A stretch of DNA of 64,000 nucleotides from Diphasiastrum complanatum. Its lineage: Eukaryota > Streptophyta > Lycopodiopsida > Lycopodiales > Lycopodiaceae. Below are positions 7,392-52,345 of this stretch, piece after piece. A program made the translations under genes and the position numbers. The stretch is from assembly GCA_029204225.1 (NCBI GenBank), contig CM055107.1:16960809-17024808 (forward strand), read 5' to 3'. Every line of letters starts with the position of its first letter. The first letter of the stretch is position 1. Below the pieces are notes generated by a model. It was given only the letters and a program-made list of their open reading frames with translations. It had not been told where the DNA came from and made no database searches.

Positions 7392-7393
7392 TG

Positions 7394-9713: not shown

Positions 9714-10633
9714 TGTTGTAAAGCTGACTTGGGTGCACCCAGCGTGCCCTGTAAGACTCAAAGAGGTGACACTCCCTAAGGTCCCAGAGCAAGTTAGAAT
9801 GTCAAGGACTGAGCCTCCGACCTGTGGTGAGCCAGTCAAGTAGTCACAAAGTCATGAGCTAGCTCTGGAGCTCGAGTCATGGCCTAGTCAGGAAAGCAGG
9901 TTGATTCGGCCGCCGGGACGGCTCCCGGGACCCATGTCCGGGAGCCAGACTGATTCTGCCAGGCTTGCCAGGCCTAATCAGCAAAATAAAAACTAAGTCC
10001 TAAAAAGCGTGCTTTACCAGAAAGCACTATGTTTCAAACCAGAGGGGGTGCGCCGAATCACAGCAGAACTATAGGGAGAGTCCGGCAGACAGAAACTTGG
10101 GCAGCTCAACCAGCGCCAGGAATCCAGTCGCTAGGTCTCAGCTCCCTCTACCAGCACGAGCCAGGCACAATGCCCAGCACGTGTTGGTGGCCCCGAGACC
10201 GGTCAGTCTATGTATGAATGTAACCTCTTCCAAATCTAATAAAGTTGATCCTTGGGGATGATTACCATTTCGGTTTCGCCTCCAGGACTGGTCCAAGTGG
10301 AAGGACCCTTACTACAACCTTTTTGCGTCGCTGGCGCCTAAGGGTCCCTGTCATCGACATGGGGCTTGCCGCTATGCCAATTGGTCAGTTTGGCGACCAC
10401 TATGCCTTGGGTTTCATGTGTGGCTTGTCTTTGCCTTTGGTTACCTTTTGGGGACGGATTCTGAGTTGGCTTTCGGGTTGGTTGGGATTTCAGTTTTCTT
10501 AAGTCTGAATGGTTAAGCTTGTTACGATTCTGAGTTGGCTTTTACGTAAGTGCATGATGGATGAATATTAGACTTAAGCGCGTGTTGGGAAAACCGCTCA
10601 AGTCCCAGCGCCCTTTGAGGCGCCGGCGCAACA
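9714..10633 (+). repeat. 5' LTR of A1
   Basis: The LTR runs from TGTTGTAAAGCTGACT to GGCGCCGGCGCAACA, 920 bp. A perfect hairpin, GTGCTTTACCAGAAAGCAC, lies at 10009-10027, shortly after an AAAATAAAAAC stretch that could act as a TATA-like element. AATAAAG lies at about 10229. The first 12 bases are the same as the B LTR, after which the two families differ. Confidence 0.88.
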
Positions 10634-10635
10634 TG

Positions 10636-10648
10636 TCGTATCATAGCC
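10636..10648 (+). promoter_or_regulatory. Primer binding site of A1, with two mismatches
   Basis: The site reads TCGTATCATAGCC where the other A and B elements have TGGTATCAGAGCC. Position and spacing (two bases after the LTR) are conserved. The two changes probably arose after insertion. Confidence 0.75.
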
Positions 10649-11315
10649 GACTAGCCGATCAGCTACGCAAGTCTCACAGGGATGGCCACGTTTTTGGGAT
10701 TTGTCAGGACAACCGTTGCGCAAGGTGCTGCCCACAGTGTAAGCACGGGTGCGTCCACGGTCGGGGTGGTCGGCAGAACGGGGGACTTGATGAGTCAAAG
10801 TGCTGCCCTCGAGGTGTAAGCACGGTCAGTTCTCGCGGTTCGGGCCTGGCGCTGTCTGCACGTAGGACGGATGAGGCAAAGTGCTGCCTAGGTAGGTGAA
10901 AGCACGGTCTGTACCTTGTGGGGTGCGGGGCGACATATTCGAACTGTACGGGTTAACCATTGATACAGAGATGCTGCTCGAATTCGGGTTTAAAGCATGG
11001 GTGGTTAGCTGCCGGTGCGGGATAGCTGCCGATCGTTTAGCTATAAGGGCTATCGACCAAAAAGTGGTGGGGCGTGACTGAGGCAATGTGCTGCTTAATG
11101 GTGAAAGCACCGGATGGTTGGATGGATGTTTCCCCGTGGGCTAATTCTGTGATAGATTTGTGTGGGCGCGGCTAGGCAAAGGTCCTACGTCCGGTCTCAG
11201 GGAGGGTTTGTGGCTTGAGAGGGATCCTCTGTGTTTGCTTTGGTTGGTATGTTCCGTTTGTCGTGTGCTTGCTTGGACACAAATGACCTGGTTCCTACTT
11301 GGCTCTCAGGTGATG
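10649..11315 (+). other. A1 untranslated leader with hairpin units
   Basis: Four GTGCTG...AAGCAC pairs lie at 10725/10741, 10800/10818, 10881/10900 and 11088/11105. The leader matches those of A2 and B along most of its length. Near its end the A1 and A2 leaders diverge, then both show a pyrimidine-rich tract followed by CAG|GTGAT (A1 near 11310), after which the coding modules differ completely. Confidence 0.7.
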
Positions 11316-11468
11316 TGGGCGTGCTAAGTTTGAGGAAGGGATATTTTCATTGAAGTTGATTTAATAAAGAAGAAAAGAGAGCTGTGAGGCCCGGCTGACA
11401 GAAGGGAGAGCTTCAAATATAAAAAAGGATTGAGGCGATAATCTGTTGAAAGTACACCTCTGACTATA

Positions 11469-13319
11469 ATGGAGGACCATCTTGAAGAGTTACGAGCACT
11501 AACGGACGGAGAAGAGCTGACTCGAGAATACAGCTCTCGCATGCATCGATATGGCACCAGGTCCAAGTCGAGAAAGAAAGAGCGTATGCACTCCATAGTG
11601 GCGCCCCTCCATGAAGAGATGAGTGGCCCTTCTGAACCTACACCAAGAGATGAACCCTTGCCAGAGGCACAACAGGACCTCTTTGAAGTGAAGATGCGGC
11701 AATACTTATCAAGCGCAATGACAGCTATGCTTAGCGAGGTGAAGAAGGATAGAGAAACCGAAAGGAAAGAATGGCAAACATCCTTGCGAGCCATGAATCT
11801 TACCCAAATTAACCTTGCTAGAGAAATGAGAGATGGGCTAACACAGCTCGAAGCCAGGTTTGAAGAGTTGGAAGCAACTAGGGAGAATGCAGTGGCGCCT
11901 CCTCCACAGATACCAAGAGAACCACGAGCGCGAACCACGGAGGGCCCAAGAAAGACTGCCAAAGTGAAAGCGCCACCTACTTTCAAAGGAGAGCGTGACA
12001 TTCGAGATGTGGAAGATTGGTTGTTTCACATGGACCATTACTTCCGTCTAATGAACACTCCTGAGGAAGAAAGAACTGACTTGGCATTAGCATATTTTGA
12101 GGGCTACACTACAAATTGGTACCAGATGGCAGGAATGCATTTTCAAACATTGGACGCATTCAAAGCCGCGTTACGAGAGGAGTTCATACCGAAGGATTCA
12201 CACATGAGATTGAGGACAGAATTATCGGGGCTCAAACAGAAAGGGTCATTGCGAGAGTACCTCAATAGATTCAGACAGAGTGTATGGGTTATTGAAGATA
12301 TGTCCGAGGCGGACAAAACTCATTACCTATTGTCTGGAATGCAATCCTGGACCCGACGTGCGATAGACAGCTACATGCCCCATGATTTCAATTCAACTAT
12401 TCGAGCGGCTGAAATGGTTTGTGATTATGAGAGCACATTGGCACCAGCTGCTCCCGCAACCTCAACAAGAGTATTTAGTGGATCCAGACCGAGTCCGAGC
12501 TTCTTTTCAAGGGGGGACTCAGCTCCAAATGGCAACCAAGCCTTGAGTAGCGTGAATAAATTCCCAACAAAAACAGGGTTTGGCAACCAAGGCAACAATG
12601 GAGGGAACATGTTCCAGAGAAGAAACAATGTTGGACCTTCAACTAGTCACAGCAACAACTCACCAACAGTGGGCAGTTCCATGCGTTGCTTCAACTGTCA
12701 TCAGCAAGGTCACTCTTGGAGATCATGCCCCAAACCATTGAATAAGCAAATCATGGCTGCCATTGAAGGATTTGATAGGATGGAGAGAGAGGCATTTGAT
12801 CAAGAAGATGGTGAACAAGATGATGAAGAGGACCCAGAAACGGATTTGACGGAGTCTGACCTGAATGCCTTGCAACAGATAGGGGCACTTGCAGCTTATC
12901 ATGAACATCTTATGGCGACTCCTGCGAGAGGATCCAAGTTATTGTACCTGAAAGGCTGTATTCAAGGCAGGATCATTTACTTCATGGTAGACCTGGGGGC
13001 GTCACATAACTACTTGTCAGAAAAACTGACAGGAGAATTGGACATCCAATGTGAAGAAAATGTGACTCCTATTTGTGTGGAGACCGCGAAAGGTACAATG
13101 ACCACTTGTATATTGGCAACCAGCTTACCAATCTCTCTGGGAGCCTGGAAGAATCGACTAACGTTCACAATCTTGAAGATGGATGCCTTCGACGCTATTT
13201 TGGGATTAAGCTGGTTTAACGAACATGTGGTGGCCTTCTTGGCAAAAGGGGTTAACCTTGTGTATTATATAATGGCAGGAGACCTTGTGTTGTCAGAGCT
13301 GTGCCAGGGGACCAACTAG
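11469..13319 (+). CDS. Gag polyprotein with C-terminal protease-like domain (A1)
   Basis: The protein has 616 residues and starts at the first ATG after the leader. Residues 1-160 are charged with a probable helical or coiled segment. Residues about 165-310 are a retrotransposon Gag (capsid) domain, with VEDWLFHMDHYF, an LREEFIP block and LREYLNRFRQS. A serine/asparagine-rich linker leads to a CCHC zinc knuckle, CFNCHQQGHSWRSC, at 407-420. An acidic stretch follows, then a retropepsin-like domain with DLGAS at 508-512 and an ILGLSWF motif. The usual DSG/DTG is DLG here, so protease activity is doubtful. Gag forms the particle and binds RNA. The frame is fully open, unlike every pol in the window, consistent with a recent and perhaps functional copy. 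Confidence 0.88.
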   Translation: MEDHLEELRALTDGEELTREYSSRMHRYGTRSKSRKKERMHSIVAPLHEEMSGPSEPTPRDEPLPEAQQDLFEVKMRQYLSSAMTAMLSEVKKDRETERKEWQTSLRAMNLTQINLAREMRDGLTQLEARFEELEATRENAVAPPPQIPREPRARTTEGPRKTAKVKAPPTFKGERDIRDVEDWLFHMDHYFRLMNTPEEERTDLALAYFEGYTTNWYQMAGMHFQTLDAFKAALREEFIPKDSHMRLRTELSGLKQKGSLREYLNRFRQSVWVIEDMSEADKTHYLLSGMQSWTRRAIDSYMPHDFNSTIRAAEMVCDYESTLAPAAPATSTRVFSGSRPSPSFFSRGDSAPNGNQALSSVNKFPTKTGFGNQGNNGGNMFQRRNNVGPSTSHSNNSPTVGSSMRCFNCHQQGHSWRSCPKPLNKQIMAAIEGFDRMEREAFDQEDGEQDDEEDPETDLTESDLNALQQIGALAAYHEHLMATPARGSKLLYLKGCIQGRIIYFMVDLGASHNYLSEKLTGELDIQCEENVTPICVETAKGTMTTCILATSLPISLGAWKNRLTFTILKMDAFDAILGLSWFNEHVVAFLAKGVNLVYYIMAGDLVLSELCQGTN

Positions 13320-13681
13320 AAAAGAACGACACAAATGAACCTGAGCCAACCATTCCTCCCAATCTCATTCACCTATTTAACGAAGGACAACCAACAGTGA
13401 CAGACCAGCTGACGCGAGAACAAATGGAGCCAAAATTGCCTATAGTCTCTACATCAAAGGTGAATTCAAGTGCCGATGCAGAGCTCAAGGAGCTCACCTT
13501 GTGTGACCAAGCAAAAACTCACCTTTTTAATGAAAGACATCCAACAGTGACAAACCAGCTGACGCGAGGTCAAATGGAGCCAACATTGCCTGCAATTTCT
13601 ACGTCAAAGGTGAATCTAAGTGCCGATGCAGAGCTCAAGGAGCTCAACCTGGACGACCAAACGAAATATCTAGAGTCCTAG
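13301..13681 (+). pseudogene. Short repetitive ORF downstream of A1 Gag
   Basis: This frame overlaps the end of the Gag-protease ORF by about 19 bases in another frame, and has no good start of its own (GTG at 13301). It encodes 126 residues that are mostly two copies of a 50-residue unit. It could be a frameshifted continuation of the polyprotein that once led into RT, or simply filler left after pol was lost. No domain is recognised. Confidence 0.5.
13370..13669 (+). repeat. Two tandem 150-bp units
   Basis: The units begin at 13370 and 13520, each with HLFNE in the readable frame, and share QLTR.QMEP, STSKVN and SADAELKEL. The period of 150 bp keeps the frame. The copies differ at several codons, so the duplication is not very recent. 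Confidence 0.85.
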
Positions 13682-14048
13682 GGGACTCATCCAGATGTGC
13701 GACGACAACGACATATCTGAGGCTTAAGGGAGCCGTGAGTACCTTTTTCTTTCATGCTAATAAAGTAAGCCGCATTTTTCATTGAGGAGTGAGCTTCAGT
13801 TTGATGTCTAAGTGCAGCAGCTTCACACAGGGTTTACGTAAGTGAACTAGATCCACACTTTTCCTGTGCTGGGTGTACAACACAATATCATTACTCTGCT
13901 TTACAGTTGGTTTCCTTTGGCCGGTGAATCAAGCCCGTGCCCTTGTATATGTGACTAAAGTCTGGCCGGTGAATTAAGCCCGTGCCATGAGTCTTAGGTT
14001 CTAGTTTGGCCCTGATGAGGACATCAGCTTTCTCAAATGAGGGGAGGA
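13682..14048 (+). other. A1 3' UTR and polypurine tract
   Basis: From about 13828 this matches the 3' UTR of A2 (51259-51427): CAGCTT.ACACAGG, TTTACGTAAGTGAAC, TTTTCCTGTGCT and GGCCGGTGAAT(T/C)AAGCCCGTGCC, repeated here at 13918 and 13965. It ends in the polypurine tract AAATGAGGGGAGGA (14035-14048) directly before the LTR. A1 and A2 therefore share the 3' as well as the 5' cis signals. Confidence 0.75.
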
Positions 14049-14968
14049 TGTTGTAAAGCTGACTTGGGTGCACCCAGCGTGCCCTGTAAGACTCAAAGGG
14101 GTGACACTCCCTAAGGTCCCAGAGCAAGTTAGAATGTCAAGGACTGAGCCTCCGACCTGTGGTGAGCCAGTCAAGTAGTCACAAAGTCATGAGCTAGCTC
14201 TGGAGCTCGAGTCATGGCCTAGTCAGGAAAGCAGGTTGATTCGGCCGCCGGGACGGCTCCCGGGACCCATGTCCGGGAGCCAGACTGATTCTGCCAGGCT
14301 TGCCAGGCTTAATCAGCAAAATAAAAACTAAGTCCTAAAAAGCGTGCTTTACCAGAAAGCACTATGTTTCAAACCAGAGGGGGTGCGCCGAATCACAGCA
14401 GAACTATAGGGGGAGTCCGGCAGACAAAAACTTGGGCAGCTCAACCAGCGCCAGGAATCCAGTCGCCAGGTCTCAGCTCCCTCTACCAGCACGAGCCAGG
14501 CACAATGCCCAGCACGTGTTGGTGGCGCCGAGACCGGTCAGTCTATGTATGAATGTAACCTCTTCCAAATCTAATAAAGTTGATCCTTGGGGATAATTAC
14601 CATTTCGGTTTCGCCTCCGGGACTGGTCCAAGTGGAAGGACCCTTACTACAACCTTTTTGCGTCGCTGGCGCCTAAGGGTCCCTGTCATTGACATGGGGC
14701 TTGCCGCTATGCCAATTGGTCAGTTTGGCGACCACTATGCCTTGGGTTTCATGTGTGGCTTGTCTTTGCCTTTGGTTACCTTTTGGGGACGGATTCTGAG
14801 TTGGCTTTCGGGTTGGTTGGAATTCCAATTTTCTTAAGTCTGAATGGTTAAGCTTGTTACGATTCTGAGTTGGCTTTTACGTAAGTGCATGATGGATGAA
14901 TGTTAGACTTAAGCGCGTGTTGGGGAAACCGCTCAAGTCCCAGCGCCCTTTGAGGCGCCGACGCAACA
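14049..14968 (+). repeat. 3' LTR of A1
   Basis: This 920-bp LTR has the same length as the 5' LTR and is nearly identical to it. It ends GGCGCCGACGCAACA at 14968 and is followed by the GGTTT target duplication. Confidence 0.88.
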
Positions 14969-15217
14969 GGTTTTACGAAAGCGATATCAAATCTACGCTT
15001 TTCCCAGACAAAGATATATTTTCAAGTTATGTAATTTTTCAGTACAAAGAGCTGAGCCTCTGACTTGTGGTGTGCCAGCTTCAATGTTAATAAAAAGGGG
15101 CCAGTAAATTGAGTACTGTGCCAAGTAGCTTAAATGTATAGTTATTTTAATTGGGAGACACCTTTACTTTAATCTGACATCTGATGAGGACATCAGATTT
15201 TATAAAGGTGGGGTGGA
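14969..15217 (+). other. B-element 3' UTR and polypurine tract
   Basis: The B element resumes after the nested A1. The sequence matches 45000-45243 and, inverted, 29155-29400 and 35010-35280. The polypurine tract AAAGGTGGGGTGGA (15204-15217) abuts the 3' LTR. The GATGAGGACATCAG word upstream also occurs in the A 3' UTR (for example near 14015), another shared cis sequence. Confidence 0.75.
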
Positions 15218-16438
15218 TGTTGTAAAGCTACCTTTACAAGCTTTACTTCCGGCGCCGTCAGCGCCAGCTATGTTCCCGACGCCAGCAGCGCCCCTTTTGC
15301 TCCCGGTGCCACTGTGACCAGAATCCAGCCGGCGCCAAGTTCCTATGGCTGAAAATCTTTTATCGGTTCTAGCAGAGTCCAGAGAGCGCAGATCGATGTG
15401 CAATCACCTCACACGATCTAGGCATGATTAAAAGAAGCCTGGGGATCAATAACATCTAGAGAGAGAAAATGACTTTCTAGAAAGAGAAAATTCTAGAGAG
15501 AGAAAAATGTGCTTTACCAACTTGGGTAGAGTGCTTGGTATGAGGGGGGGGGGTGCCGAATCACACCAATACTATAGGCGAGTGCGGGTTGCGACTCAGG
15601 GCGAGCTCCAACCAAGTCTCAGCTTCCCTTGCTGGAATGTTGTCATGGCTCTCGCCTTGGCATGCTAGCGCCCCGAAGACTAGGGTCGGTCACACACTTG
15701 AAATGTAACCTTCTCAGATTTATCAATAAAGTGGGATTTTCCTCAAACTGACTCTGATTACCTTCTGGGTTTCAGCGTTCGGTAAAAGCGCCAGTTGTAA
15801 GGCCGCTTTCAAAATTTTGAACTTGGCACATAGCTGAGGGTCGTATCCCGGGACGCCAGCAGTATGCCGTCGAGACCATTCGGTCCGTGGCGCCAGCGGT
15901 ATGCTATCGGGACCGTTTGGTCCAGGAACTGGTTGTTTCCATATCTGTCGCAGCTTGTGGTTCTGAGTGTTCCTTGCATGAACGTGAATGGGTTAAGCTC
16001 TTGGGGAACGGGCTTTAACCTGTCGGCTGAGTTGGATGGCTTGCTTGGGTGGATGTTACCTGTTTATGGCTATCAAGTCTGGCGTGGCGCCAGGTTGGCT
16101 TTCAGCGCTCGTGACGAAGCTTTCAGTTGATTAAGTCTGATGTAAGTCAGACCACTTGCTTGGAATGGATGTTACTCGTTTGTAACGAAGTTTCGAGTTG
16201 GTTAAGTTTGATGTATGTCGGGCGGCTTGCTTGGAGGGAAGTCACCCACATCGGGACCCCCGATCTGGCATGGCGCCAAGTTGGATCTCAATGTTGGTTT
16301 TCGAAACTTCAAGTTGGTTAAGTCTGATCGTTGTTGGCGAGTTGGCCGCTTGTATGTCAAGTGGGTTTGGATGGCAAGAGTTGAAGGCTGGGAAGCTAAG
16401 TCGTGGTTCCCGGCTCCCTTTGGGATGCCTGCGCTATA
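15218..16438 (+). repeat. 3' LTR of B element
   Basis: This is 1221 bp, from TGTTGTAAAGCTACC to CTGCGCTATA, with the final ACA mutated to ATA. The TSD TTAGA follows at 16439-16443. An AATAAAG signal lies near 15727. Confidence 0.87.
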
Positions 16439-16528
16439 TTAGAGCCCGTTCCCCAAGAGCTTAACCCATTCACGTTCATGCAAGGAATACTCAGAACCAC
16501 AAGCTGCGACAGATATGGAAACAACACG

Positions 16529-17115
16529 AGCGTTGGGCATCATATAAAAACATCATATAAAAACTAAGTCGTAAAAAGCGTTGGGCAGCTCAACCAGCGC
16601 CAGGAATCCAGTCGCCAGGTCTCAGCTCCCTCTACCAGCACGAGCCAGGCACAATGCCCAGCACGTGTTGGTGGCCCCGAGACCGGTCAGTCTATGTATG
16701 AATGTAACCTCTTCCAAATCTAATAAAGTTGATCCTTGGGGATGTTTACCATTTCGGTTTCGCCTCCGGGACTGGTCCAAGTGGAAGGACCCTTACTACA
16801 ACCTTTTTGCGTCGTTGGCACCTAAGGGTCCCTGTCATCGACATGGGGCTTGCCGCTATGCCAAATGGTCAGTTTGGCGACCACTATGCCTTGGGTTTCA
16901 TGTGTGGCTTGTCTTTGCCTTTGGTTACCTTTTGGGGACGGATTCTGAGTTGGCTTTCGGGTTGGTTGGGATTCCAGTTTTCTTAAGTCTGAATGGTTAA
17001 GCTTGTTACGTTTCTGAGTTGGCTTTTACGTAACTGCATGATGGATGAATGTTAGACTTAAGCGCGTGTTGGGGAAACCACTCAAGTCCCAGCGCCCTTT
17101 GAGGCGCCGGCGCAA
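16529..17115 (+). repeat. A-family LTR fragment inside the solo B LTR
   Basis: From about 16546 this matches the second half of the A LTR, with an internal deletion that removes the GTGCTTT hairpin, and ends GGCGCCGGCGCAA at 17115 without the final CA. A short duplicated CATCATATAAAAA word lies at its left edge. B LTR sequence resumes at 17116. No target duplication is visible, so it may be a deletion-scarred solo LTR. Confidence 0.7.
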
Positions 17116-17788
17116 TAGCTGGCGTCCCGGGATGCGACCCTCAGCCATGTGCCAAGTTAAAAATTTTGACAGCGGCCTTACAACTGGCGCTTTTACCGAA
17201 CACTGAAACCCAGAAGGTAATCAGAGTCGGTTTGAGGAAAATCACACTTTATTGATAAATCTGAGAAGGTTACATTTCAAGTGTGTGACTGACCCTAGTC
17301 TCCGGGGCGCTAGCATGCCAAGGCGAGAGCCATGACAACATTCCAGCAAGGGAGGCTGAGACTTGATTGGAGCTCGCCCTGAGTCGCAACCTGCACTCCC
17401 CTATAGTATTGGTGTGATTCGGCACCCCCCCCCCCTCATACCAAGCACTTTACCCAAGCTGGTAAAGCACGTTTTTCTCTCTCTAAAATTTTCTCTTTCT
17501 AGAAAGTCATTTTCTCTCTCTAGATTTTATTGATCCCCAGGCTTCCTTTAATCATGCCTAGATCGTGTGAGGTGATTGCACATCGATCTGAGCTCTCTGG
17601 ACTCCGCTAGAACCAATCAAAGATTTTTAGCCATAGGAACTTGGCGCCGGCTGGATTCTGGTCACAATGGCGCCAGGAGCGGCGTCGGCGCCGTTGGCGC
17701 CGGGAGCAGCAGGGGCGCTGCTGGCGCCGTAGATATAGCTAGCGCCAATGGCGCCGGAAGTAAAGCTTGTAAAGGTAGCTTTACAACA

Positions 17789-21032: not shown

Positions 21033-21038
21033 AATATT

Positions 21039-24123: not shown

Positions 24124-24325
24124 TCTTTGGTTACCTTTTGGGGACGGATTCTGAGTTGGCTTTCGGGTTGGTTGGGATTCCAGTTTTTTTAAGTCTGAAT
24201 GGTTCAGCTTGTTACGTTTCTGAGTTGGCTTTTACGTAAGTGCATGATGGATGAATGTTAGACTTAAGCGCGTGTTGGGAAAACCGCTCAAGTCCCAGCG
24301 CCCTTTGAGGCGCCAGCGCAACATG

Positions 24326-24338
24326 TGGTATCAGAGCC
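24326..24338 (+). promoter_or_regulatory. Primer binding site of truncated A2
   Basis: TGGTATCAGAGCC lies two bases after the LTR end at 24323, as in the other A and B elements. Confidence 0.85.
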
Positions 24339-26366: not shown

Positions 26367-26379
26367 AATTTGGATGGAG

Positions 26380-38867: not shown

Positions 38868-39108
38868 TCCTCCCCTCGTTTGAAAAAGCTGATGTCCTCA
38901 TCAGGGCCAAACTAGACCTAGGACGTATGGCACGGGCTTAATTCACCGACCTTAGCAACTTTGAATTACAAAATACATTGGCAGTAGCACAGGAAAAGTG
39001 TAGATAAAGTTCACTTACGTAAAATCTGTGTAAAGCTGCAAGTGATTTATTGGCAAACATAAGAAAAATACTGGAAAGTTCCTTGAACTTCAGAATGGCC
39101 ATGAATGT

Positions 39109-40005: not shown

Positions 40006-40008
40006 AGT

Positions 40009-41220
40009 TCAAAACTTTCCAACGAACTTGGTGTCTCGGTCAGAAATAATCATTCTAGGCAGGCCGTGGTATTTGAAAACACATTTGAAAAATAACCTTG
40101 CCACTTCTTCAGCTGTCACTGAACTTTTAGTTGGTACTAGATGAACTTGCTTTGAAAAGCGGTCAACCACCACATAAATTGAGTCAAATCCTTGGCACCG
40201 TGGTAGTTGAACAATAAAATCCATGCTCACCGAATCCCATGGGTATGCTGGTACCGGTAATGGTTGGAGTAGTCCAGCCGGAGCTAGCGGTTCCACCTTC
40301 ACTTGTTGACATGTCGGGCATGTTTGTACATAGGATTCAACGTCTGCCCACATACTTGGCCAATAGAAGCCTCTTTTGAGAAGTTCATACATGCGATTCA
40401 CCCCTGGATGCCCGGCGGCTAGTATGTCATGATGTTCTCGCAAGACTTTCTTCCTCAGGTTGATGTTGTCTGGGACATATACTCTGCGTTGTTTATAAAC
40501 AACCATTTGATCTTTCCAAGTGAAATGTTTATGAGGCTTTCCCAGCTGGAATTCGATCATTAAGTCCTTCGCCAACGCATCTACACCATAATTCTCTCTG
40601 ATTTCTTGGAGTAGGCCAGTCACTGTTGCCATTAAGTGTTCCTGTCTACTTAGTGCGTCCGCCACCACATTGTTCTTTTCCGTCGTGTGTAAAATGTCTA
40701 TATTGAATCTTGAGAGAAAGTTTTGCCATCGCATTTGCTTTGGCGTGAGCACACCTTGGGATGAGAAGTACTTGAGTGATACATTATCAGTGAACGCCTT
40801 AAGGGGTTTTCCTACCACATAATGTTTCCAATGCTCCACTGCTTGGACTACTGCGACCATTTCTTTTTCATGAGTTGGCCATCGTCGCTCTACGTCACTC
40901 AATTTCTTTGAAAAATATGCAACAGGTTTACCGTCTTGCATCAGCACGGCCCCAATAGCAAAGTACGACGCATCCGTATGTATTTCAAAAGGTTTGCTAA
41001 AGTCTGGTAAGGCAAGGATGGGTTTTTGAGTGATTAGTCGTTTTAGTTCTTGGAACGCTGCTTTATATTCCGGTGTCCATGTCATCTTCAGATGAGTTTT
41101 GGTCTGCTCCAACAGTGGTGCCACAATTTTGCTAAATGCCTCAATGAATCTCCTGTAAAAGTTACATAAGCCCACAAAGGATTTGATGCCATGAACAGTT
41201 TTAGGTGCTAGCCAATCCAA
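40009..41220 (-). pseudogene. A2 RNase H and integrase core (minus copy)
   Basis: The frame opens at the RT/RNase H connection (IKSFVGLCNFYRRF), then RNase H (EIHTDASYFAIGAVLMQ ... NNVVADALSRQ), the integrase zinc domain (AGHPGVNRMYELL ... CPTCQQ) and the core up to DRDTKFVGKF. It is in the same frame as the chromodomain part and separated from it by one TGA. Upstream it is out of frame with RT because of the deletion at about 41220. Confidence 0.87.
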
Positions 41221-42551
41221 GATAGCCGTCCGTGGCCTATAACATGTCCAAGGAAGTCAACTTCCTCCACCACAAACTCACATTTCTCTCTTTTCGCGAA
41301 GAAGCAGTTCCTCCTCGGTCGTTGGAGAACTGTCCTTAAATGTTGAATGTGATCTTTAAGGTTCCGGCTAAATACTAATATGTCATCAATGTACACAATG
41401 ACAAATTCATCCAGGCAGTCTTGAAATATATTGTTCATCAACGTGCAAAAAGTGGCTGGTGCGTTTGTTAGACCGAATGGCATCACCAGGAACTCGTGAC
41501 TCCCGTATCGCGTTCGAAACGCCGTTTTGTGCTCATCACCTTTAGCTATTCAAATTTGATGATATCCAGATCTGAGATCTATTCGGCTAAAGTATTTGGC
41601 ATGTTTGAGTTGGTCGAATAGGTCATCAATTCTAGGCATGGGGTACTTGTTCTTGATGATACTCTTGTTAAGCATGCGATAATCCACACACATTCGAAGA
41701 GTTTTGTCTGTCTTTTCCACGAACAACACTGGGGCTCCAAAAGGTGAAGCGCTAGATCTAATAAAACCTTTGTCTATTAATTCACCAAGTTGTCGTTTCA
41801 GTTCCGCCAACTCTTCTTGTGACATTCTGTAGGGTGCTCGTAAAGTTGGATCTGTTCCTGCTACCAACTCAATTTTATGGTCCACTGGTCTTCGAGGAGG
41901 TAGCTTAGCTGGGAGTTCCTCCGGGAACACATCGCTAAATTCTTCTAACAGATCTGCCACTTCTTTTGGCAAGTTTTCTTGTCGCACGCTTTTCCCTTCT
42001 GGGACTTCTCGACAGATGCAAAGAAAGCACTGTGACCTTTTCCCTTTCGCCATTCTTTTCATCACTAATGCTGCAACCAGATTTTGTTCAATATCGGTAT
42101 CCTTAGCATTTCCTCCGGGTAGGGCTTTTGTCACCCAAATTTGTCCCTTATAATCCAAGAGGACCAAGTTTGAGCTCCTACCCAAAACTGCGATACAGTG
42201 TTCATTTAACCAAGGGAGGCCCAAAATCACATCAAAGGCATCCATCTCTAAAGTCACAAAGCTAAGTTTAGCCTTCCATCTTCCAATCTGCACCGGGATG
42301 TTCAATGTCGCTTTGTCTGCATCTAGTGCTCCCTTCGCTGTTTCTACCTTGAGAGTAGATGTAACATTCCTGGTCGCCAAGCTGAGTTGTTCCACTACGC
42401 TCCTTGAGATATAGTTATGTGAAGCTCCGGAGTCGATCATGAAATCTGACTTCCTCCCCGCGATCTTTCCTGATAAGAATAACAATCTTGAACCAATCTT
42501 GGGGGTTGCCCCATGGAAGTTCCTTTTCATACTTGTGCGTCGTCCACTCAT
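41208..42551 (-). pseudogene. A2 protease and reverse transcriptase (minus copy)
   Basis: ATG at 42551 starts [14 protein letters not shown], and a retropepsin follows almost at once ([22 protein letters not shown]). There is no capsid domain or zinc knuckle before it. RT follows with [30 protein letters not shown] and YIDD. A TGA at 41547-41549 replaces the CGA of the other copies. The frame ends at [11 protein letters not shown] owing to the shared deletion. Confidence 0.88.
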
Positions 42552-43266
42552 AAATGTAAGCTCCTCTCACAACACCCAACTAGATCAGATCACCTGGATC
42601 AAAAGAAGTAGTCAAGGATAATTCAGGTCCAGGCAAGCACACCACAAACGAACATACCAACCAAAGCTAAACAGAGGATCCCTCTCAAGTCACATTCCCC
42701 TTGAGACCGGACGTAGGATCTTTGCCTAGCCGCGCCCACACAAATCTATCACAGAATTAGTCCACGGGGAAACATCCATCCATCCATCCGTGCTTTCACC
42801 ATTAAGCAGCACATTGCCTTAGTCACGCCCCACCACTTTTTGGTCTATAGCCCTTATAGCTAAACGATCGGCAGCTATCCTGCACCGGCAGCTAACCAAC
42901 CGTGCTTTACACCCGAATTCGAGCAGCATCTCTGTATCAATGGTTAACCTGTACAGTTTTAATATGTCGCCCCGCACCCCACAAGGTACAGACCGTGCTT
43001 TTACCTACCTAGGCAGCACTTTGCCTCATCCGTGCTACGTGCAGACAGCGCCAAGCCCGAACCGCGAGAACTGACTGTGCTTACACCTCGAGGGTAGCAC
43101 TTTGACTCATCAAGTCCCCCGTTCTGCCGACCACCCCGACCGTGGACGCACTCGTGCTTACACTGTGGGCAGCACCTTGCGCAACGGTTGTCCTGACAAA
43201 TCCTAAAAACATGGCCATCCCTGTGAGACTTGCGTAGCTTACCGGCTAGTCGGCTCTGATACCACA
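42552..43266 (-). other. A2 leader and primer site (minus copy)
   Basis: This has the same leader as in 24339-25050 and 47044-47732, with the primer site GGCTCTGATACCA (plus-strand view) at 43252-43264. A pyrimidine-rich tract and CAG|GTGATCTG lie near 42590. Confidence 0.8.
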
Positions 43267-43434
43267 TGTTGCGCCGGCGCCTCAAAGGGCGCTGGGACTT
43301 GAGCGGTTTCCCCAACACGCGCTTAAGTCTAACATTCATCCATCATGCAGTTACGTAAAAGCCAACTCAGAAACGTAACAAGCTTAACCATTCAGACTTA
43401 AGAAAACTGGAATCCCAACCAACCCGAAAGCCAA

Positions 43435-43693
43435 CAAGTAACATCCATTCCAAGCAAGCGGTCTGACTTACATCAGACTTAACCAACTGAAAGCTTCGTC
43501 ATGAGCGATGGAAGCCAACATGGCGCCATGCCAGTCTGGACAGCCATAAACAGGTAACATCCACCCAAGCAAGCCATCCAACTCAGCCGACAGGTTAGAG
43601 CCCGTTACTCAAGAGCTTAACCCATTCACGTTCATGCAAGGAACACTCAGAACCATGCGACAGATATGGAAACAACCAGTTCCTGGACCAAAC
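43435..43693 (-). repeat. B LTR fragment
   Basis: This reads as an internal B LTR stretch, AAGTAACATCC to CCTGGACCAAAC, and is joined at both sides by deletion junctions: to the truncated A2 LTR on the left and to B internal sequence of opposite strand on the right. Confidence 0.75.
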
Positions 43694-46111: not shown

Positions 46112-47029
46112 TGTTGTAAAGCTGACTCAGGTGCACCCAACGTGCCCTATAAGACTCTAAGAGGTGACACTCCCTAAGGTCCCAGAGCAAGTTAGAACGT
46201 CAAGGACTGAGCGTCCGACCTGTGGTGAGCCAGTCAAGTAGTCACAAGTCATGAGCTAGCTCTGGAGCTCGAGTCATGGCCTAGTCAGAAAGCAAGTTGA
46301 TTCTGCCACCGGAACGGCTCCCGAGACCCATGTCCGGGAGCCAGACTGATTCTGCCAGGCTTGCCAGGCTTAATCAGCAAAATAAAAACTAAGTCTCAAA
46401 AAGCGTGCTTTACCAGAAAGCACTATGTTTCAGAACAGAGGGGGTGCGCCGAATCACAGCAGAACTATAGGGGGAGTCCGGCAGACAGAAACTTGGGCAG
46501 CTCAACCAACACCAGGAATCCAGTCGCCATGTCTCAGCTCCCTCTACCAGCACGAGCCAGGCACAATGCCCAGCACGTGTTGGTGGCCCCGAGACCGGTC
46601 AGTCTATGTATGAATGTAACCTCTTCCAAATCTAATAAAGTTGATCCTTGGGGATGATTACCATTTCAGTTTCGCCTCTGGGACTGGTCCAAGTGGAAGG
46701 ACCCTTACTACAACCTTTTTGCGTCGCTGGTGCCTAAGGGTCCATGTCATCGACATGGGGCTTGCCGCTATGCCAATTGGTCAGTTTGGCGACCACTATG
46801 CCTTGGGTTTCATGTGTGGCTTGTCTTTGCCTTTGGTTACCTTTTGGGGACGGATTCTGAGTTGGCTTTCGGGTTGGTTGGGATTCCAGTTTTCTTAAGT
46901 CTGAATGGTTAAGCTTGTTACGTTTCTGAGTTGGCTTTTACGTAACTGCATGATGGATGAATGTTAGACTTAAGCGCGTGTTGGGGAAACCGCTCAAGTC
47001 CCAGCGCCCTTTGAGGCGCCGGCGCAACA
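46112..47029 (+). repeat. 5' LTR of full-length A2
   Basis: The LTR runs from TGTTGTAAAGCTGACTC to GGCGCCGGCGCAACA. The GTGCTTT/AAAGCAC hairpin lies at about 46404-46422 and AATAAAG at about 46636. The primer site follows at 47032. Confidence 0.9.
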
Positions 47030-47031
47030 TG

Positions 47032-47043
47032 TGGTATCAGAGC
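47032..47043 (+). promoter_or_regulatory. Primer binding site of full-length A2
   Basis: TGGTATCAGAGC lies two bases after the LTR. The next bases (TGAC instead of CGAC) differ slightly from other copies. Confidence 0.88.
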
Positions 47044-47732
47044 TGACTAGCCAGTCAGCTACGCAAGTCTCACAGGGATGGCCACGTTTTGGGATTTGTC
47101 AGGACAACCCTTGCGCAAGGTGCTGCCCACAGTGTAAGCACGGGTGCGTCCATGGTCGGGGTGGTCGGCAGAACGGGGGACTTGATGAGTCAAAGTGCTG
47201 CCCTCGAGGTGTAAGTACGGTTAGTTCTCGCGGTTCGGGCCTGGCGCTGTCTGCACGTAAGACGGATGAGGCAAAGTGCTGCCTAGGTAGGTGAAAGCAC
47301 GATCTGTACCTTGTGGGGTGCGGGGCGACATATTCGAACTGTACGAGTTAACCATTGATACAAAGATGCTGCTCGAATTCGGGTGTAAAGCACGGGTGGT
47401 TAGCTGCCGGTGCGGGATAGCTGCCGATCGTTTAGTTATAAGGGCTATCGACCAAAAAGTGGTGGGGCGTGAATGAGGCAATGTTCTGCTTAATGGATGG
47501 ATGGATGGATGTTTCCCCGTGGGCTAATTTTGTGATAGATTTGTGTGGGCGCGGCTGGGCAAAGATCCTACGTCCGGTCTCAAGGGGAATGTGACTTGAG
47601 AGGGATCCTCTGTTTAGCTTTGGTTGGTATGTTCGTTTGTGGTGTGCTTGCCTGGACCTGAATTACCCCTGACTACTTGTTTTGATCCAGGTGATCTGAT
47701 CTAGTTGGGAGTTGTGAGAGGAGCTTACATTT
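47044..47732 (+). other. A2 leader, hairpin units and possible splice acceptor
   Basis: The GTGCTG...AGCAC units are present as in A1, although the last one is damaged (TTCTGCTTAATGGATGGATGG). The leader ends with TTGTTTTGATCCAG|GTGATCTG near 47690. No Gag-like frame is present. Confidence 0.75.
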
Positions 47733-49076
47733 ATGAGTGGACGACGCACAAGTATGGAAAGGAACTTCCATGGGGCAATCCCCAAGATTGGTTCAAGATT
47801 GTTATTCTTATCAGGAAAGATCGCGGGGAGGAAGTCAGATTTCATGACCGACTCCGGAGCTTCACATAACTATATCTCAAGGAGCGTGGTGGAACAATTC
47901 AGCTTGCCGACCAGGAATGTTACATCTACTCTCAGGGTAGAAACAGCGAAGGGAGCACTAGATGCAGACAAAGCGACATTGAACATCCCGGTGCAGATTG
48001 GAAGATGGAAGGCTAAACTTAGCTTTGTGATTTTAGAGATGAATGCCTTCGATGTGATTTTGGGCCTCCCTTGGTTAAATGAACACTGTATCGCAGTTTT
48101 GGGTAGGAGCTCAAACTTGGTCCTCTTGGATTATAAGGGACAAATCTGCGTGACAAAAGCCCTGCCCGGAGGAAATGCTAAGGATACCGATATTGAACAA
48201 AATTTGGTTGCAGCATTAGTGATGAAAAGAATGGCGAAAGGGAAAAGGTCACAGTGCTTTCTTTGCATCTGTCGAGAAGTCCCAGAAGGGAAAAGCGTGC
48301 GACAAGAAAACTTGCCAAAAGAAGTGGCAGATCTGTTAGAAGAATTTAGCGATGTGTTCCCGGAGGAACTCCCAGCTAAGCTACCTCCTCGAAGACCAGT
48401 GGACCATAAAATTGAGTTGGTAGCAGGAACAGATCCAACTTTACGAGCACCCTACAGAATGTCACAAGAAGAGTTGGCGGAACTGAAACGACAACTTGGT
48501 GAATTAATAGACAAAGGTTTTATTAGACCTAGCGCTTCACCTTTTGGAGCCCCAGTGTTGTTCGTGGAAAAGACAGACAAAACTCTTCGAATGTGTGTGG
48601 ATTATCGCATGCTTAACAAGAGTACCATCAAGAACAAGTACCCCATGCCTAGAATTGATGACCTATTCGACCAACTCAAACATGCCAAATACTTTAGCCG
48701 AATAGATCTCAGATCTGGATATCATGAAATTCGAATAGCTAAAGGTGATGAGCACAAAACGGCGTTTCGAACGCGATACGGGAGTCACGAGTTCCTGGTG
48801 ATGCCATTCGGTCTAACAAACGCACCAGCCACTTTTTGCACGTTGATGAACAATATATTTCAAGACTGCCTGGATGAATTTGTCATTGTGTACATTGATG
48901 ACATATTAGTATTTAGCCGGAACCTTAAAGATCACATTCAACATTTAAGGACAGTTCTCCAACGACTGAGGAGGAACTGCTTGTTCGCGAAAAGAGAGAA
49001 ATGTGAGTTTGTGGTGGAGGAAGTTGACTTCCTTGGACATGTTATAGGCCACGGACGGCTATCTTGGATTGGCTAG
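47733..49076 (+). pseudogene. A2 protease and reverse transcriptase (full-length copy)
   Basis: The start [12 protein letters not shown] is conserved with the minus copy. The retropepsin has D40-S-G-A-S and [12 protein letters not shown] has [10 protein letters not shown], a DLRSGYHEI block, [12 protein letters not shown] and the catalytic YIDD at 387-390. It ends [11 protein letters not shown] and a stop at 49076. About ten codons that join RT to RNase H in relatives are missing and the frame is lost at about 49052-49063. RT would copy the RNA into cDNA inside a particle, but this copy lacks its own Gag and a continuous Pol. Confidence 0.9.
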
Positions 49077-49375
49077 CACCTAAAACTGTTCATGGCATCA
49101 AATCCTTTGTGGGCTTATGTAACTTTTACAGGAGATTCATTGAGGCATTTAGCAAAATTGTGGCACCACTGTTGGGGCAGACCAAGACTCATCTGAAGAT
49201 GACATGGACACCGGAATGTGAAGCAGCGTTCCAAGAACTAAAACAACGGATCACTCAAGAACCCATCCTTGCCTTACCGGACTTTAGCAAACCTTTTGAA
49301 ATACATACAGATGCGTCGAACTTTGCTATTGGGGCCGTGCTGATGCAAGACGGAAAACCAATTGCATATTTTTAA
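49064..49375 (+). pseudogene. A2 RNase H, first part
   Basis: This is a second frame, starting at [18 protein letters not shown] without a proper ATG. It carries the connection domain and the start of RNase H (IHTDASNFAIGAVLMQ). A one-base deletion at 49373-49375 (TTTTTAAAG where the minus copy implies TTTTTCAAAG) makes the TAA stop. Confidence 0.85.
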
Positions 49376-49380
49376 AGAAA

Positions 49381-50598
49381 TTGAGTGACGTAGAGCGACG
49401 ATGGCCAACTCATGAAAAAGAAATGGTCGCAGTAGTTCAAGCAGTGGAGCATTGGAGACATTATGTGGCAGGAAAACCCTTTAAGGCGTTCACTGATAAT
49501 GTATCACTCAAGTACTTCTCATCCCAAGGTATGCTCACGCCAAAGCAAATGCGATGGCAAAACTCTCTCTCAAAATTCAATATAGACATTTTACACACGA
49601 CGGGAAAGAACAATGTGGTGGCGGATGCACTAAGTAGACATGAACACTTGATGGCAACAGTGACAACTCAGGTGACTGGCCTACTCCAAGAAATCAGGGA
49701 GAATTATGGTGTAGATGCGTTGGCGAAAGACTTAATGATCGAATTCCAGCTGGGAAAGCCTCATAAACATTTCACTTGGAAAGATCAAATGGTTGTTTAT
49801 AAACAACGCAGAGTATATGTCCCAGACAACGTCAACCTGAGGAAGAAAGTCTTGCGAGAACATCATGACGTACTAGCCGCCGGGCATCCAGGGGTGAATC
49901 GCATGTATGAACTTCTCAAAAGAGACTTCTATTGGCCAAGTATGTGGGCAGACGTTGAATCCTATGTGCAAACATGCCCGACATGTCAACAAGTGAAGGT
50001 GGAACCGCTAGCTCCGGCTGGACTACTCCAACCATTACCGGTACCAGCATACCCATGGGATTCGGTGAGCATGGATTTTATTGTTCAACTACCACGGTGC
50101 CAAGGATTCGACTCAATTTATGTGATGGTTGACCGGTTTTCAAAGCAAGTTCATCTAGTACCAACTAAAAGTTTAGTGACAGCTGAAGAAGTGGCAAGGT
50201 TATGTTTCAAATGTGTTTTCAAATACCACGGCCTGCCTAGAACGATTATTCCTGACCGAGATACCAAGTTCGTCGGAAAGTTTTGGACTTGTCTATTTCG
50301 CCTCGTGGGAACCGGATTGAATTTCAGTACTGCATATCACCCTCAGACAGATGGGCAAACGGAACGAGTCAATCGACAGATTGAACAATATATACGAAAT
50401 TATGTCGCTTGGGACCAATCCGATTGGGTCAACTACTTGGATATTCTCGAGTTTGCACATAACAACCAAGTGAACAGATCTACTGGAAGGGCACCCTTCG
50501 AGATAAGCAATGGTCAGCTACCGATTGTTCCAAGCTCTTTTCTTACAGGCATGCAGGAAACACCAGTACCCACTGTAGAGAAATTTATCAATGAGTAG
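49381..50598 (+). pseudogene. A2 RNase H end and integrase
   Basis: The frame covers RRWPTHEKEMVAVV, the RNase H end (NNVVADALSRH), the HHCC domain (AGHPGVNRMYELL ... CPTCQQ) and the catalytic core (SMDFIVQLP, DRDTKF and HPQTDGQTERVN), so D, D and E are all present. One oddity is IIPDRDTKF, where relatives have IISDRD. It ends at TAG 50596-50598, a former TGG tryptophan codon (FINEW in the minus copy). Confidence 0.88.
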
Positions 50599-51186
50599 CA
50601 CACAAAGCTGACAGAGGTGAAGGCATTTTTAGAGCAGTCACAAAGGAGTATGGCAGCTGACGTAAACCCACATCGACGAGAACTGGAATTTGAGGAAGGT
50701 GATCGAGTATGGCTGAACACAAAGAACATTGCGTTACCAAAAGGTTTTTCTCATAAGTTCGCTCGACCTTATGCGGGTCCATATTATGTCACCAAGAAGA
50801 TCAACCCAGTGGCTTACCGATTAGCGCTGCCATCCAGCTTGGATATACACAATGTGTTTCATATCTCATTACTCAAACGGTACAAACCAGATGAGCGATT
50901 TGATCGGCAACACGAACTCTGTCGCCCACCAACGACACTTGATGATACGAAGAGGCAGCTTGTACCAGAACAAATATTGACACATAGAAAGCGAACTGGC
51001 GTTCAACGTGAATATCTAGTGAAGTGGCTACGGGCTCCACTTATTGAGGCTTCTTGGGAGTACGAAGACAAACTTAAGGAGGGAGCCCCTGAAGTACTAG
51101 CAGATTATCTGCAGAAGAACCAACGCAATAGCCATTTTCCCAGATCGGCACACAAAGCACTACCTGGCAGCATGCCTCTTACATAA
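50599..51186 (+). pseudogene. A2 integrase C-terminal domain and chromodomain
   Basis: This is in the same frame as the integrase core, after its single stop. From the M codon at 50617, residues 20-70 form the GPY/F-type domain (GDRVWLN, then FARPYAGPYYV). Residues about 115-168 form a chromodomain (VPEQILTHRKRT, EYLVKWL, ASWEYED). This places A2 among the chromoviruses. It ends at the normal stop. Confidence 0.87.
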
Positions 51187-51427
51187 ACATTCATGGCCAT
51201 TCTGAAGTTCAAGGAACTTCCTGGTATTTTTCTTAAGTTTGCCAATAAATCACATGCAGCTTTACACAGGTTTTACGTAAGTGAACTTTATCTACACTTT
51301 TCCTGTGCTACTGCCAATGTATTTTGTGATTCAAAGTTGTTAAGGCCGGTGAATTAAGCCCGTGCCATACGTCCTAGGTCTAGTTTGGCCCTGATGAGGA
51401 TATCAGCTTTTTCAAACGAGGGGAGGA
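51187..51427 (+). other. A2 3' UTR and polypurine tract
   Basis: This shares TTACACAGG, TTTTACGTAAGTGAAC, GGCCGGTGAATTAAGCCC and CCCTGATGAGGA with the A1 3' UTR. The polypurine tract AAACGAGGGGAGGA ends at 51427, directly before the 3' LTR. Confidence 0.78.
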
Positions 51428-52345
51428 TGTTGTAAAGCTGACTCAGGTGCACCCAACGTGCCCTGTAAGACTCTAAGGGGTGACACTCCCTAAGGTCCCA
51501 GAGCAAGTTAGAACGTCAAGGACTAAGCCTCCGACCTGTGGTGAGCCAATCAAGTAGTCACAAGTCATGAGCTAGCTCTGGAGCTCGAGTCATGGCCTAG
51601 TCAGAAAGCAAGTTGATTCTGCCACCGGAACGGCTCCCGGGACCCATGTCCGGGAGCCAGACTGATTCTGCCAGGCTTGCCAGGCTTAATCAGCAAAATA
51701 AAAAATAAGTCCCAAAAAGCGTGCTTTACCAGAAAGCACTATGTTTCAGAACAGAGGGGGTGCGCCGAATCACAACAGAACTATAGGGGGAGTCCGGCAG
51801 ACAGAAACTTGGGCAGCTCAACCAACACCAGGAATCCAGTCGCCATGTCTCAGCTCCCTCTACCAGCACGAGCCAGGCATAATGCCCAGCACATGTTGGT
51901 GGCCCCGAGACCGGTCAGTCTATGTATGAATGTAACCTCTTCCAAATCTAATAAAGTTGATCCTTGGGGATGATTACCATTTCGGTTTCGCCTCCGGGAC
52001 TGGTCCAAGTGGAAGGACCCTTACTACAACCTTTTTGCGTCGCTGGCGCCTAAGGGTCCCTGTCATCGACATGGGGCTTGCCGCTATGCCAATTGGTCAG
52101 TTTGGCGACCACTATGCCTTGGGTTTCATGTGTGGCTTGTCTTTGCCTTTGGTTACCTTTTGGGGACGGATTCTGAGTTGGCTTTCGGGTTGGTTGGGAT
52201 TCCAGTTTTCTTAAGTCTGAATGGTTAAGCTTGTTACGTTTCTGAGTTGGCTTTTATGTAACTGCATGATGGATGAATGTTAGACTTAAGCGCGTGTTGG
52301 GAAAACCGCTCAAGTCCCAGCGCCCTTTGAGGCGCCGGCGCAACA
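51428..52345 (+). repeat. 3' LTR of full-length A2
   Basis: This is 918 bp, the same length as the 5' LTR, with scattered substitutions (for example CTGTAAG against CTATAAG, AGCCAATC against AGCCAGTC). It is followed by GTTAC. Confidence 0.9.

What the first reader, a model, noticed from the sequence alone, without database searches (positions are those of the whole stretch)
9714..52345. Complementary Gag-only (A1) and Pol-only (A2) elements share one set of cis signals
Seen: A1 (9714-14968) has LTRs, primer site, leader, Gag-protease ORF, 3' UTR, polypurine tract and a perfect TSD, but no RT or integrase. A2 (46112-52345) has the same family of LTR, leader, 3' UTR and polypurine tract and a perfect TSD, but starts coding at protease and has no gag. 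Three A2 copies (24 kb, 38-43 kb and 46-52 kb) show the same leader-to-protease junction, so lack of gag is a lineage trait. Known: gag-defective BARE-2 and TR-GAG elements exist in plants, each as one-sided parasites. Inference: here the two halves may form a mutually dependent, two-component retrotransposon.
Basis: partly seen in the sequence, partly recalled or inferred. Interest (0 to 1): 0.87.

Follow-up and report, generated by a model that had tools for sequence, protein, structure and literature searches.

The report
Jumping gene split into two halves
A jumping element in this large genome appears to exist as two separate, complementary kinds, one making only the shell protein and the other only the copying enzymes, so that neither could move without a partner.

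Summary
A1 (9714-14968) is a Gag-protease-only Ty3/Gypsy element and A2 (46112-52345) a Pol-only chromodomain element. Both have perfect 5-bp target duplications and share LTR, leader and polypurine tract, but their coding DNA shows no match (proteases 41% identical). In the source genome (1.74 Gb) both kinds are multicopy and young, with intact frames in most copies read. Gag-only: 14 of 18 copies carry the same 737-aa frame, and 8 of 13 LTR pairs have no substitution. Pol-only: 4 of 5 copies read in full carry one 1160-aa frame from its own ATG, and LTR pairs differ at 0-4 sites. None of 36 informative Pol copies, from two lineages (dS 0.57, dN/dS 0.07 in protease-RT), has gag. None of 39 Gag copies leads into RT in the stretch read. 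Each kind is found inserted in the other. The Gag copies' protease site reads DLG/DMG; Pol-only copies keep DSG. Best reading: a two-component retrotransposon, Gag from one element and all enzymes from the other, with shared packaging signals and a non-coding rider (B). Published relatives lack one half beside a proposed complete partner. A rare complete copy or outside helper is not excluded: each search scored only 40 candidates, and function was not tested.

The parts
9714..10633 (+). A1 (Gag-only) 5' LTR, preceded by TSD GGTTT (9709-9713)
   Evidence: sequence; self-comparison; LTR pair 15/920 differences
10634..11468 (+). A1 primer-binding site (tRNA-iMet type, name recalled) and leader with repeated GTGCTGC...AAGCAC hairpins (4 in A1, 2 in window A2, 4 in B1); possible 3' splice site CAG|GTGAT near 11309
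11469..13319 (+). A1 Gag - zinc knuckle - protease ORF (616 aa here; 737 aa in 14 of 18 sampled genome copies); protease site reads DLG
13320..14048 (+). A1 tail, 3' UTR and polypurine tract; 13964 onward shared with A2
14049..14968 (+). A1 3' LTR, followed by TSD GGTTT (14969-14973)
46112..47029 (+). A2 (Pol-only) 5' LTR, preceded by TSD GTTAC (46107-46111)
47030..47732 (+). A2 primer-binding site and leader; runs directly to the Pol start, no gag
47733..51186 (+). A2 Pol: protease (DSG), RT, RNase H, integrase, SH3, chromodomain; frame broken in this copy, one 1160-aa frame in 4 of 5 fully read genome copies
51187..51427 (+). A2 3' UTR and polypurine tract
51428..52345 (+). A2 3' LTR, followed by TSD GTTAC (52346-52350)
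37957..43435 (-). A3: second Pol-only copy, truncated in its 5' LTR, 96.5% identical to A2; frame broken
24125..27762 (+). A4: third Pol-only copy, truncated and deleted; protease-RT half from an older lineage (dS 0.57), 3' half close to A2 (mosaic)
16581..17118 (+). A-type LTR fragment
6174..16438 (+). B1: LTR element with no long reading frame in the part tested, A1 nested inside; LTRs 6174-7391 and 15218-16438, TSD TTAGA; shares the LTR start, primer site and leader hairpins with A1/A2

Best explanation
This is a split (two-component) Ty3/Gypsy chromodomain retrotransposon family. Gag-only elements (A1 type) supply the particle protein. Pol-only elements (A2 type, and an older sister lineage, A4 type) supply protease, RT, RNase H and integrase from their own start codon, not as a Gag-Pol fusion. 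Shown: both kinds are multicopy, and the copies read are young, mostly with intact frames, with the same LTR termini, primer site and PPT core and nearly identical LTR and leader. Inferred: both RNAs enter the same Gag particles through the shared leader; the Pol-only protease processes Gag, because the Gag element's own protease site has lost the usual D-S/T-G; one RT and integrase copy and insert both; template switching in mixed particles keeps the control regions alike while coding regions stay apart. A third element without long reading frames (B), with the same leader, probably rides along.
For: Gag-only copies young and intact: 18 of 20 long loci around the best A1-LTR hits hold the Gag-only element; 14 of those 18 have the same 737-aa frame; of 13 LTR pairs measured 8 show no substitution (one of these with 9 gap columns) and the others 1, 2, 2, 2 and 6; 10 of 13 TSDs are perfect, 3 have one mismatch. 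Pol-only copies young and intact: 4 of 5 read in full have one 1160-aa frame; the four LTR pairs measured differ at 0, 0, 2 and 4 sites, all with perfect TSDs. No complete form in the samples: 0 of 36 informative Pol copies with gag, 0 of 39 Gag copies with RT in the stretch read. Insertion both ways: a Gag-only element in the leader of a Pol-only one on C22; a Gag-type LTR in the protease of another Pol-only one; a Pol-only element with TSD GATGA inside an A-type LTR that, by the spacing to the gag hit beside it, is the 3' LTR of a Gag-only element. Long gag-less history: A2 and A4 protease-RT differ by dS 0.57 but dN 0.041, and both lineages share the gag-less junction (19 of 20 and 11 of 12 contiguous). 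Gag in use: in the Gag part of 14 frames 13 of 29 variants change the protein against 19.8 expected (P 0.008); in protease plus tail 23 of 34 against 23.9. Protease site DLG (16) or DMG (1) in 17 readable of 18 Gag copies, DSG in 19 of 19 Pol-only copies. The A1 and A2 proteases are each other's best match among 120 relatives. LTRs of the two kinds differ at only 15 of 909 sites plus 3 gaps.
Against: No expression, particle or mobility data. Each genome search scored only 40 of 962-1871 candidates, so rare complete copies or a helper in another LTR family could be missed. The selection signal in Gag is modest (whole frame: 36 changes against 43.7, P 0.023), and the frames tested were chosen for being intact. 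The same test on the first 172 Pol codons showed no deficit (15 against 15.5), and between the broken window copies A2 and A3 dN/dS is 0.44 overall and 0.78 in protease-RT. Some loci may be segmental duplicates (two pairs of Gag frames are identical). All three Pol copies in the window itself are broken. Without fusion to Gag, how Pol enters particles is unexplained. A DLG site is only likely, not proven, to inactivate the protease.
Confidence: 0.66

Rival explanations
1. A complete (Gag-Pol) helper, rare or of another LTR family, mobilises both A1 and A2, which are two semi-autonomous dependants, as proposed for Wilma/Sabrina/WHAM and Cereba/Quinta in wheat.
For: In both published wheat systems read here a complete partner is proposed. 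The searches scored only 40 candidates each. An ordinary, degenerate Gypsy element C with gag and pol lies in this window.
Against: No complete A-type copy among 36 informative Pol and 39 Gag copies. Protease-RT kept under purifying selection between two gag-less lineages and Pol intact in 4 of 5 young copies, which a helper's full protein set would make needless. C's protease-RT is only about 42% identical to A2, and (pieces of 150 bases or more) C matches A elements only in an RT stretch of about 230 bases.
Confidence: 0.25
2. A1 and A2 are deletion derivatives of one recent complete A element, moved together by leftover complete copies.
For: They share LTR, leader, 3' UTR and PPT at 95-96%.
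Against: Coding DNA shows no blastn match; both carry a protease, 41% identical; 38 of 39 Gag copies share one layout behind the protease and 36 of 36 informative Pol copies lack gag; the Pol-only layout appears to predate a split of dS 0.57.
Confidence: 0.05
3. The Pol-only lineage borrows Gag from other families, and A1 is a parasite on it that happens to keep a Gag frame.
For: Gag-less Tos17 is active in rice and is thought to borrow Gag from Lullaby (PMC3977881).
Against: A1 is the only Gag source seen with the same LTR and leader; its Gag part is short of amino-acid changes; its frame is intact in 14 of 18 copies.
Confidence: 0.04

Closest known systems
Wilma / Sabrina_SA / WHAM 'cooperative complex' of wheat (Gypsy; PMC9744471, passages seen)
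   Same: Gag-protease-only elements, thought to supply Gag; multicopy.
   Different: There the enzymes come from a complete element (Wilma) and homology between partners is reduced to a few motifs; here the enzyme partner itself lacks gag and LTR/leader are nearly identical.
RLG_Cereba / RLG_Quinta of Triticeae (Gypsy; PMC11302176, abstract and passages seen)
   Same: Gag-only partner sharing primer site, LTR ends and PPT with an enzyme-coding partner; Gag coding DNA diverged while flanks stay alike, put down to recombination.
   Different: Cereba is described as autonomous (all proteins), so dependence is one-sided.
Tos17 of rice (Copia; PMC3977881, abstract and results section read)
   Same: Active element with a Pol frame and clean loss of gag.
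   Different: Copia; two copies in the rice reference; its proposed Gag donor Lullaby is a complete element, similar only in the internal sequence; no Gag-only partner described there.
BARE-2 of barley and TR-GAG elements (BARE-2 mentioned in PMC9744471 passages; both named in a PMC6696364 passage; otherwise recalled)
   Same: Gag-defective and Gag-only layouts respectively.
   Different: As far as seen or recalled, each is described singly; BARE-2 presumably uses Gag of BARE-1; not two halves of one family.
Bipartite endogenous florendoviruses (Caulimoviridae; PMC4241990, passages seen)
   Same: Two components with complementary protein sets and nearly identical control (intergenic) regions; compound insertions.
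   Different: Relatives of plant pararetroviruses, not LTR elements (recalled); here LTRs, target duplications and very young copies.

Membership tests
LTR retrotransposon, Ty3/Gypsy, chromodomain group | LTRs with TSD, primer site, PPT | tested here: met
LTR retrotransposon, Ty3/Gypsy, chromodomain group | Order protease-RT-RNase H-integrase, chromodomain at the C end | tested here: met
   (A2, A3)
LTR retrotransposon, Ty3/Gypsy, chromodomain group | Gag and Pol on one element | tested here: not met
   0 of 36 informative Pol copies with gag, 0 of 39 Gag copies with RT in the stretch read
TR-GAG | LTR element coding Gag but no Pol enzymes (definition recalled) | tested here: met
   A1 and 18 of 18 long genome copies: Gag with a protease domain (site altered), no RT or integrase inside
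BARE-2/Tos17-like (gag-less) | Pol intact, gag absent, gag taken from a complete relative | tested here: inconclusive
   Pol intact and gag absent: met. Complete relative as Gag donor: not found in samples
Autonomous / non-autonomous pair (wheat criteria, PMC11302176) | Same primer site and LTR termini, shared PPT | tested here: met
   (one young copy of each kind)
Autonomous / non-autonomous pair (wheat criteria, PMC11302176) | One partner codes all proteins | tested here: not met
   neither kind does in any sampled copy; census incomplete
Two-component (mutually dependent) retrotransposon | Both RNAs in one particle, proteins acting in trans | not testable with these tools
   needs RNA and particle data
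Two-component (mutually dependent) retrotransposon | Both kinds young, intact and inserting in the same period | tested here: met

The most novel reading that the evidence does not exclude
An obligate two-part LTR retrotransposon: the genome holds no working complete element, and Gag-only and Pol-only elements have persisted together (Pol part gag-less for a synonymous distance of about 0.57), each moving only in particles built and loaded by both, with Pol packaged without being fused to Gag and with its protease cutting Gag in trans.
Probability: 0.5. Interest if true: 0.9.

Novelty: new variant of a known kind. Interest (0 to 1): 0.82.

Why it matters
LTR retrotransposons and retroviruses normally keep gag and pol on one RNA, and Pol is usually carried into the particle as a Gag-Pol fusion (recalled). 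A successful family that keeps them on separate elements would be a natural test of how Pol can be packaged without fusion, of how segmented genomes arise in reverse-transcribing elements, and of how cooperation between selfish elements stays stable without a complete helper. Young copies of both halves make these questions testable in the living organism.

Tried and rejected
Protein homologues of A1 Gag: none at E 0.001 in two searches (whole ORF, 7996 candidates scored, residues 165-330, 329 candidates), so the Gag lineage could not be placed outside this genome. Relatives in viral contigs: none confirmed. Rfam: no match in the window at gathering scores. tRNA genes: none found. Recent deletion origin of A1 and A2: rejected. 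Leader structure: the alignment of five leaders is too alike to prove a fold (3 of 176 pairs with two-sided changes); the hairpins are conserved sequence, their packaging role is inference. A 3' splice site at the conserved CAG|GTGAT before the start codons was noted but cannot be tested without RNA. A genome-wide pattern count of gag was wanted to test co-location with RT fully; the pattern request did not complete. In its place the two 40-hit lists were compared: one pair within 15 kb, a Pol-only element nested in a Gag-type element's LTR. A first measurement of the Gag-only LTR pairs took the LTR one base too long, which added a false difference to most pairs; one search replaces it. Papers: none holds 'retrotransposon', 'gag-only' and 'pol-only' together; in the listings (titles and starts of abstracts) I saw no split LTR element with both halves. 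The library holds open-licence papers only.
Full report
What is in the window. A1 (9714-14968) is bounded by LTRs of 920 bp and the target duplication GGTTT. Its ORF 11469-13319 matches Retrotrans_gag, Ty3_capsid (below cut-off) and retroviral protease in Pfam, and tblastn finds no RT or integrase in it. A2 (46112-52345) is bounded by LTRs of 918 bp and GTTAC. It begins coding just before protease and carries RT, RNase H, integrase, SH3 and chromodomain. Its frame is broken in this copy, as are A3 and A4. All-against-all blastn (pieces of 150 bases or more) shows that A1 and A2 are alike only in LTR plus leader (94.9%, ending at 11278/47657) and in the 3' UTR, PPT and LTR (95.9%, from 13964/51344). 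Between these points there is only a protein match of the two proteases (41% identity over 134 residues). So the two elements share their control sequences and differ in what they code. A3 and A4 have the same leader-to-protease junction as A2.

Gag-only elements in the source genome. The window lies in a genome of 1.74 Gb. Of 42 listed matches of the A1 LTR, 40 are full-length at 99-100% and two are partial at 97-98%; several are paired at 4334-4335 bp, the A1 spacing. I fetched 20 long loci. Eighteen hold the Gag-only element; two (L021, L022) show the LTR but no gag. Fourteen of the 18 have one 737-aa Gag-protease frame; in L016, L019, L023 and L025 it is broken. L016 and the window share their break and nearly all sequence of A1, so L016 is probably a second copy of this region. 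Thirteen LTR pairs could be measured: eight show no substitution (L023, one of these, has 9 gap columns), the others 1, 2, 2, 2 and 6; ten have perfect 5-bp duplications and three have one mismatch (which corrects). The window's own A1 is older, 15 of 920. Of ten further LTR hits probed with two short stretches each, eight show gag, none pol, and two neither (one of these a leader, the other an LTR piece).

Pol-only elements in the source genome. The 40 scored hits of the A2 RT (of 1176 candidates) are 98-100% identical and lie on many contigs. For 20 of the 40 I fetched about 1.1 kb upstream. Nineteen run without a break into the A2 leader, with no gag. The twentieth (L033) has a Gag-type LTR inserted in its protease, so its own upstream side was not seen. 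Five copies were read in full: C22 (L009/L029), L050, L051, L052 and L053. Four have one open frame of 1160 codons from an ATG; L052 has its frame interrupted. In L050, L051 and L053 the open frame starts only five codons before that ATG. The four LTR pairs that could be measured differ at 0/909 (C22), 0/918 (L052), 4/918 (L051) and 2/917 (L053), all with perfect duplications. The three window copies are all broken.

An older gag-less lineage. A4's protease-RT differs from A2 by dS 0.57 and dN 0.041 (dN/dS 0.07; 114 synonymous and 41 other changes), while its RNase H-integrase half differs by only dS 0.08 (dN/dS 0.45). A4 is therefore a mosaic, as template switching makes. Between the broken copies A2 and A3, dN/dS is 0.44 overall and 0.78 in protease-RT, so constraint shows over the long span and not between these two. 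A4's protease-RT belongs to a multicopy lineage of its own (40 scored of 962 candidates, 97-98% except the window and C119 copies). Twelve of these were probed upstream: eleven show the same gag-less junction, and the twelfth (L094) has leader joined to protease by a deletion, again without gag. So Pol seems to have been kept by selection while gag-less for a long time. This assumes that the junction was inherited with the protease-RT segment; the junction region itself carries the lineage's own differences.

Search for a complete element. Counting distinct copies, 37 Pol copies were looked at (20, 12, C22, L051, and A2, A3, A4); 36 are informative (L033 is not) and none has gag. Gag copies chosen by gag sequence (40 scored of 1048 candidates) were probed with 401 bases behind the protease in 20 cases: 19 match the A1 tail, and one (L080) is unrelated DNA with no RT match. 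With the 18 and the window copy, 38 of 39 Gag copies run into the A1 tail and none into RT in the stretch read. This bounds complete copies among the most similar ones to roughly under a tenth; it says nothing about rarer or more diverged ones.

Signs that the halves work together. (a) Insertion both ways: a Gag-only element lies in the leader of the C22 Pol-only element with duplication GGCGC; a Gag-type LTR (98.5% to A1's, 96.9% to A2's) lies in another Pol-only protease; a Pol-only element on C1 (L053) with duplication GATGA lies in an A-type LTR, which by its exact spacing from the gag hit at C1:21984940 is the 3' LTR of a Gag-only element. (b) Same signals: LTR termini (TGTTGTAAAGCTGACT at the start, GGCGCCGGCGCAACA at the end), the 38 bases from the primer site on, and the PPT core are identical between a young Gag-only and a young Pol-only copy; their LTRs differ at 15 of 909 sites plus 3 gaps. 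The LTRs form two clades (support 0.999 on 12 LTRs). Control regions are thus far more alike than coding regions, which I read as exchange in mixed particles (inference). (c) Division of labour: the protease site is DLG in 16 and DMG in 1 of 17 readable Gag copies of 18, while 19 of 19 Pol-only copies keep DSG. That D-S/T-G is needed for activity is recalled knowledge. Among 14 Gag frames there are 63 variants; the Gag part shows 13 amino-acid changes of 29 variants against 19.8 expected (P 0.008), protease and tail 23 of 34 against 23.9 (P 0.42), the whole frame 36 against 43.7 (P 0.023) (one variant read as a stop because a two-base change was taken letter by letter). Results against: 172 Pol codons of 20 copies show no such deficit (15 against 15.5), and the 14 frames were chosen for being intact. 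(d) Kinship: each protease is the other's best match among 120 relatives of A2 protease-RT (the set was collected with A2 as query), so the halves probably descend from one older Gag-Pol lineage.

How it probably works. Both kinds are transcribed from near-identical LTRs. A1 makes Gag. A2 makes Pol from its own start codon; the conserved CAG|GTGAT shortly before the starts might be a splice acceptor that removes the leader from messengers (untested). Gag packages RNAs bearing the shared leader with its repeated GTGCTGC...AAGCAC hairpins. Pol must enter without Gag fusion; foamy viruses do this with separately made Pol (recalled), perhaps by binding packaged RNA. The Pol-only protease then cuts Gag and Pol, and RT and integrase copy and insert either RNA. 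All of these steps are inference. B1 (6174-16438, duplication TTAGA, longest open frame 133 codons in the part tested, 7392-9713) has the same LTR start, primer site and leader and is likely a passenger.

What is known. Seen: wheat Gag-only or Gag-protease-only elements with complete partners (PMC11302176 abstract and passages; PMC9744471 passages), gag-less active Tos17 (PMC3977881 abstract and results section), bipartite florendoviruses (PMC4241990 passages), a review naming TR-GAG and BARE-2 (PMC6696364 passage). In what I saw of these, a split of one LTR family into two intact, complementary, young halves without a complete partner is not described. My paper searches cover only open-licence papers, and I saw their listings only. 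I therefore call it a new variant of a known kind: each half has known parallels, the pairing does not in what I could read.

Noticed in passing
6174-16438: B1, an LTR element without long reading frames in the part tested (TSD TTAGA) that shares primer site and leader hairpins with A1/A2 but has its own LTR body; several more B pieces lie in the window.
   Followed up: partly
10634-11468 and 47030-47732: Leader carries GTGCTGC...AAGCAC hairpins (4 in A1 and B1, 2 in window A2), and in one B copy (31006-31592) a leader stretch is multiplied in tandem; candidate packaging signal.
   Followed up: partly
near 11309 and 47692: CAG|GTGAT after a pyrimidine-rich stretch is conserved just before the start codons of A1, A2 and A4 although the sequence before it has diverged; possible 3' splice site.
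   Followed up: no
L016 (contig C119) and window 9714-27762: Contig C119 holds near-identical copies of A1 and A4 at about the window's spacing; probably a second haplotype or duplicate of this region.
   Followed up: no
19221-23537: Element C, a degenerate ordinary Gypsy element with gag, protease, RT and integrase, minus strand; its protease-RT is about 42% identical to A2.
   Followed up: partly
L080: One gag copy of 20 runs, behind the protease, into DNA with no match in the window.
   Followed up: no
13320-13680: A1's tail behind the protease domain contains a duplicated stretch of about 150 bp, within the 737-aa frame of other copies; function unknown.
   Followed up: no
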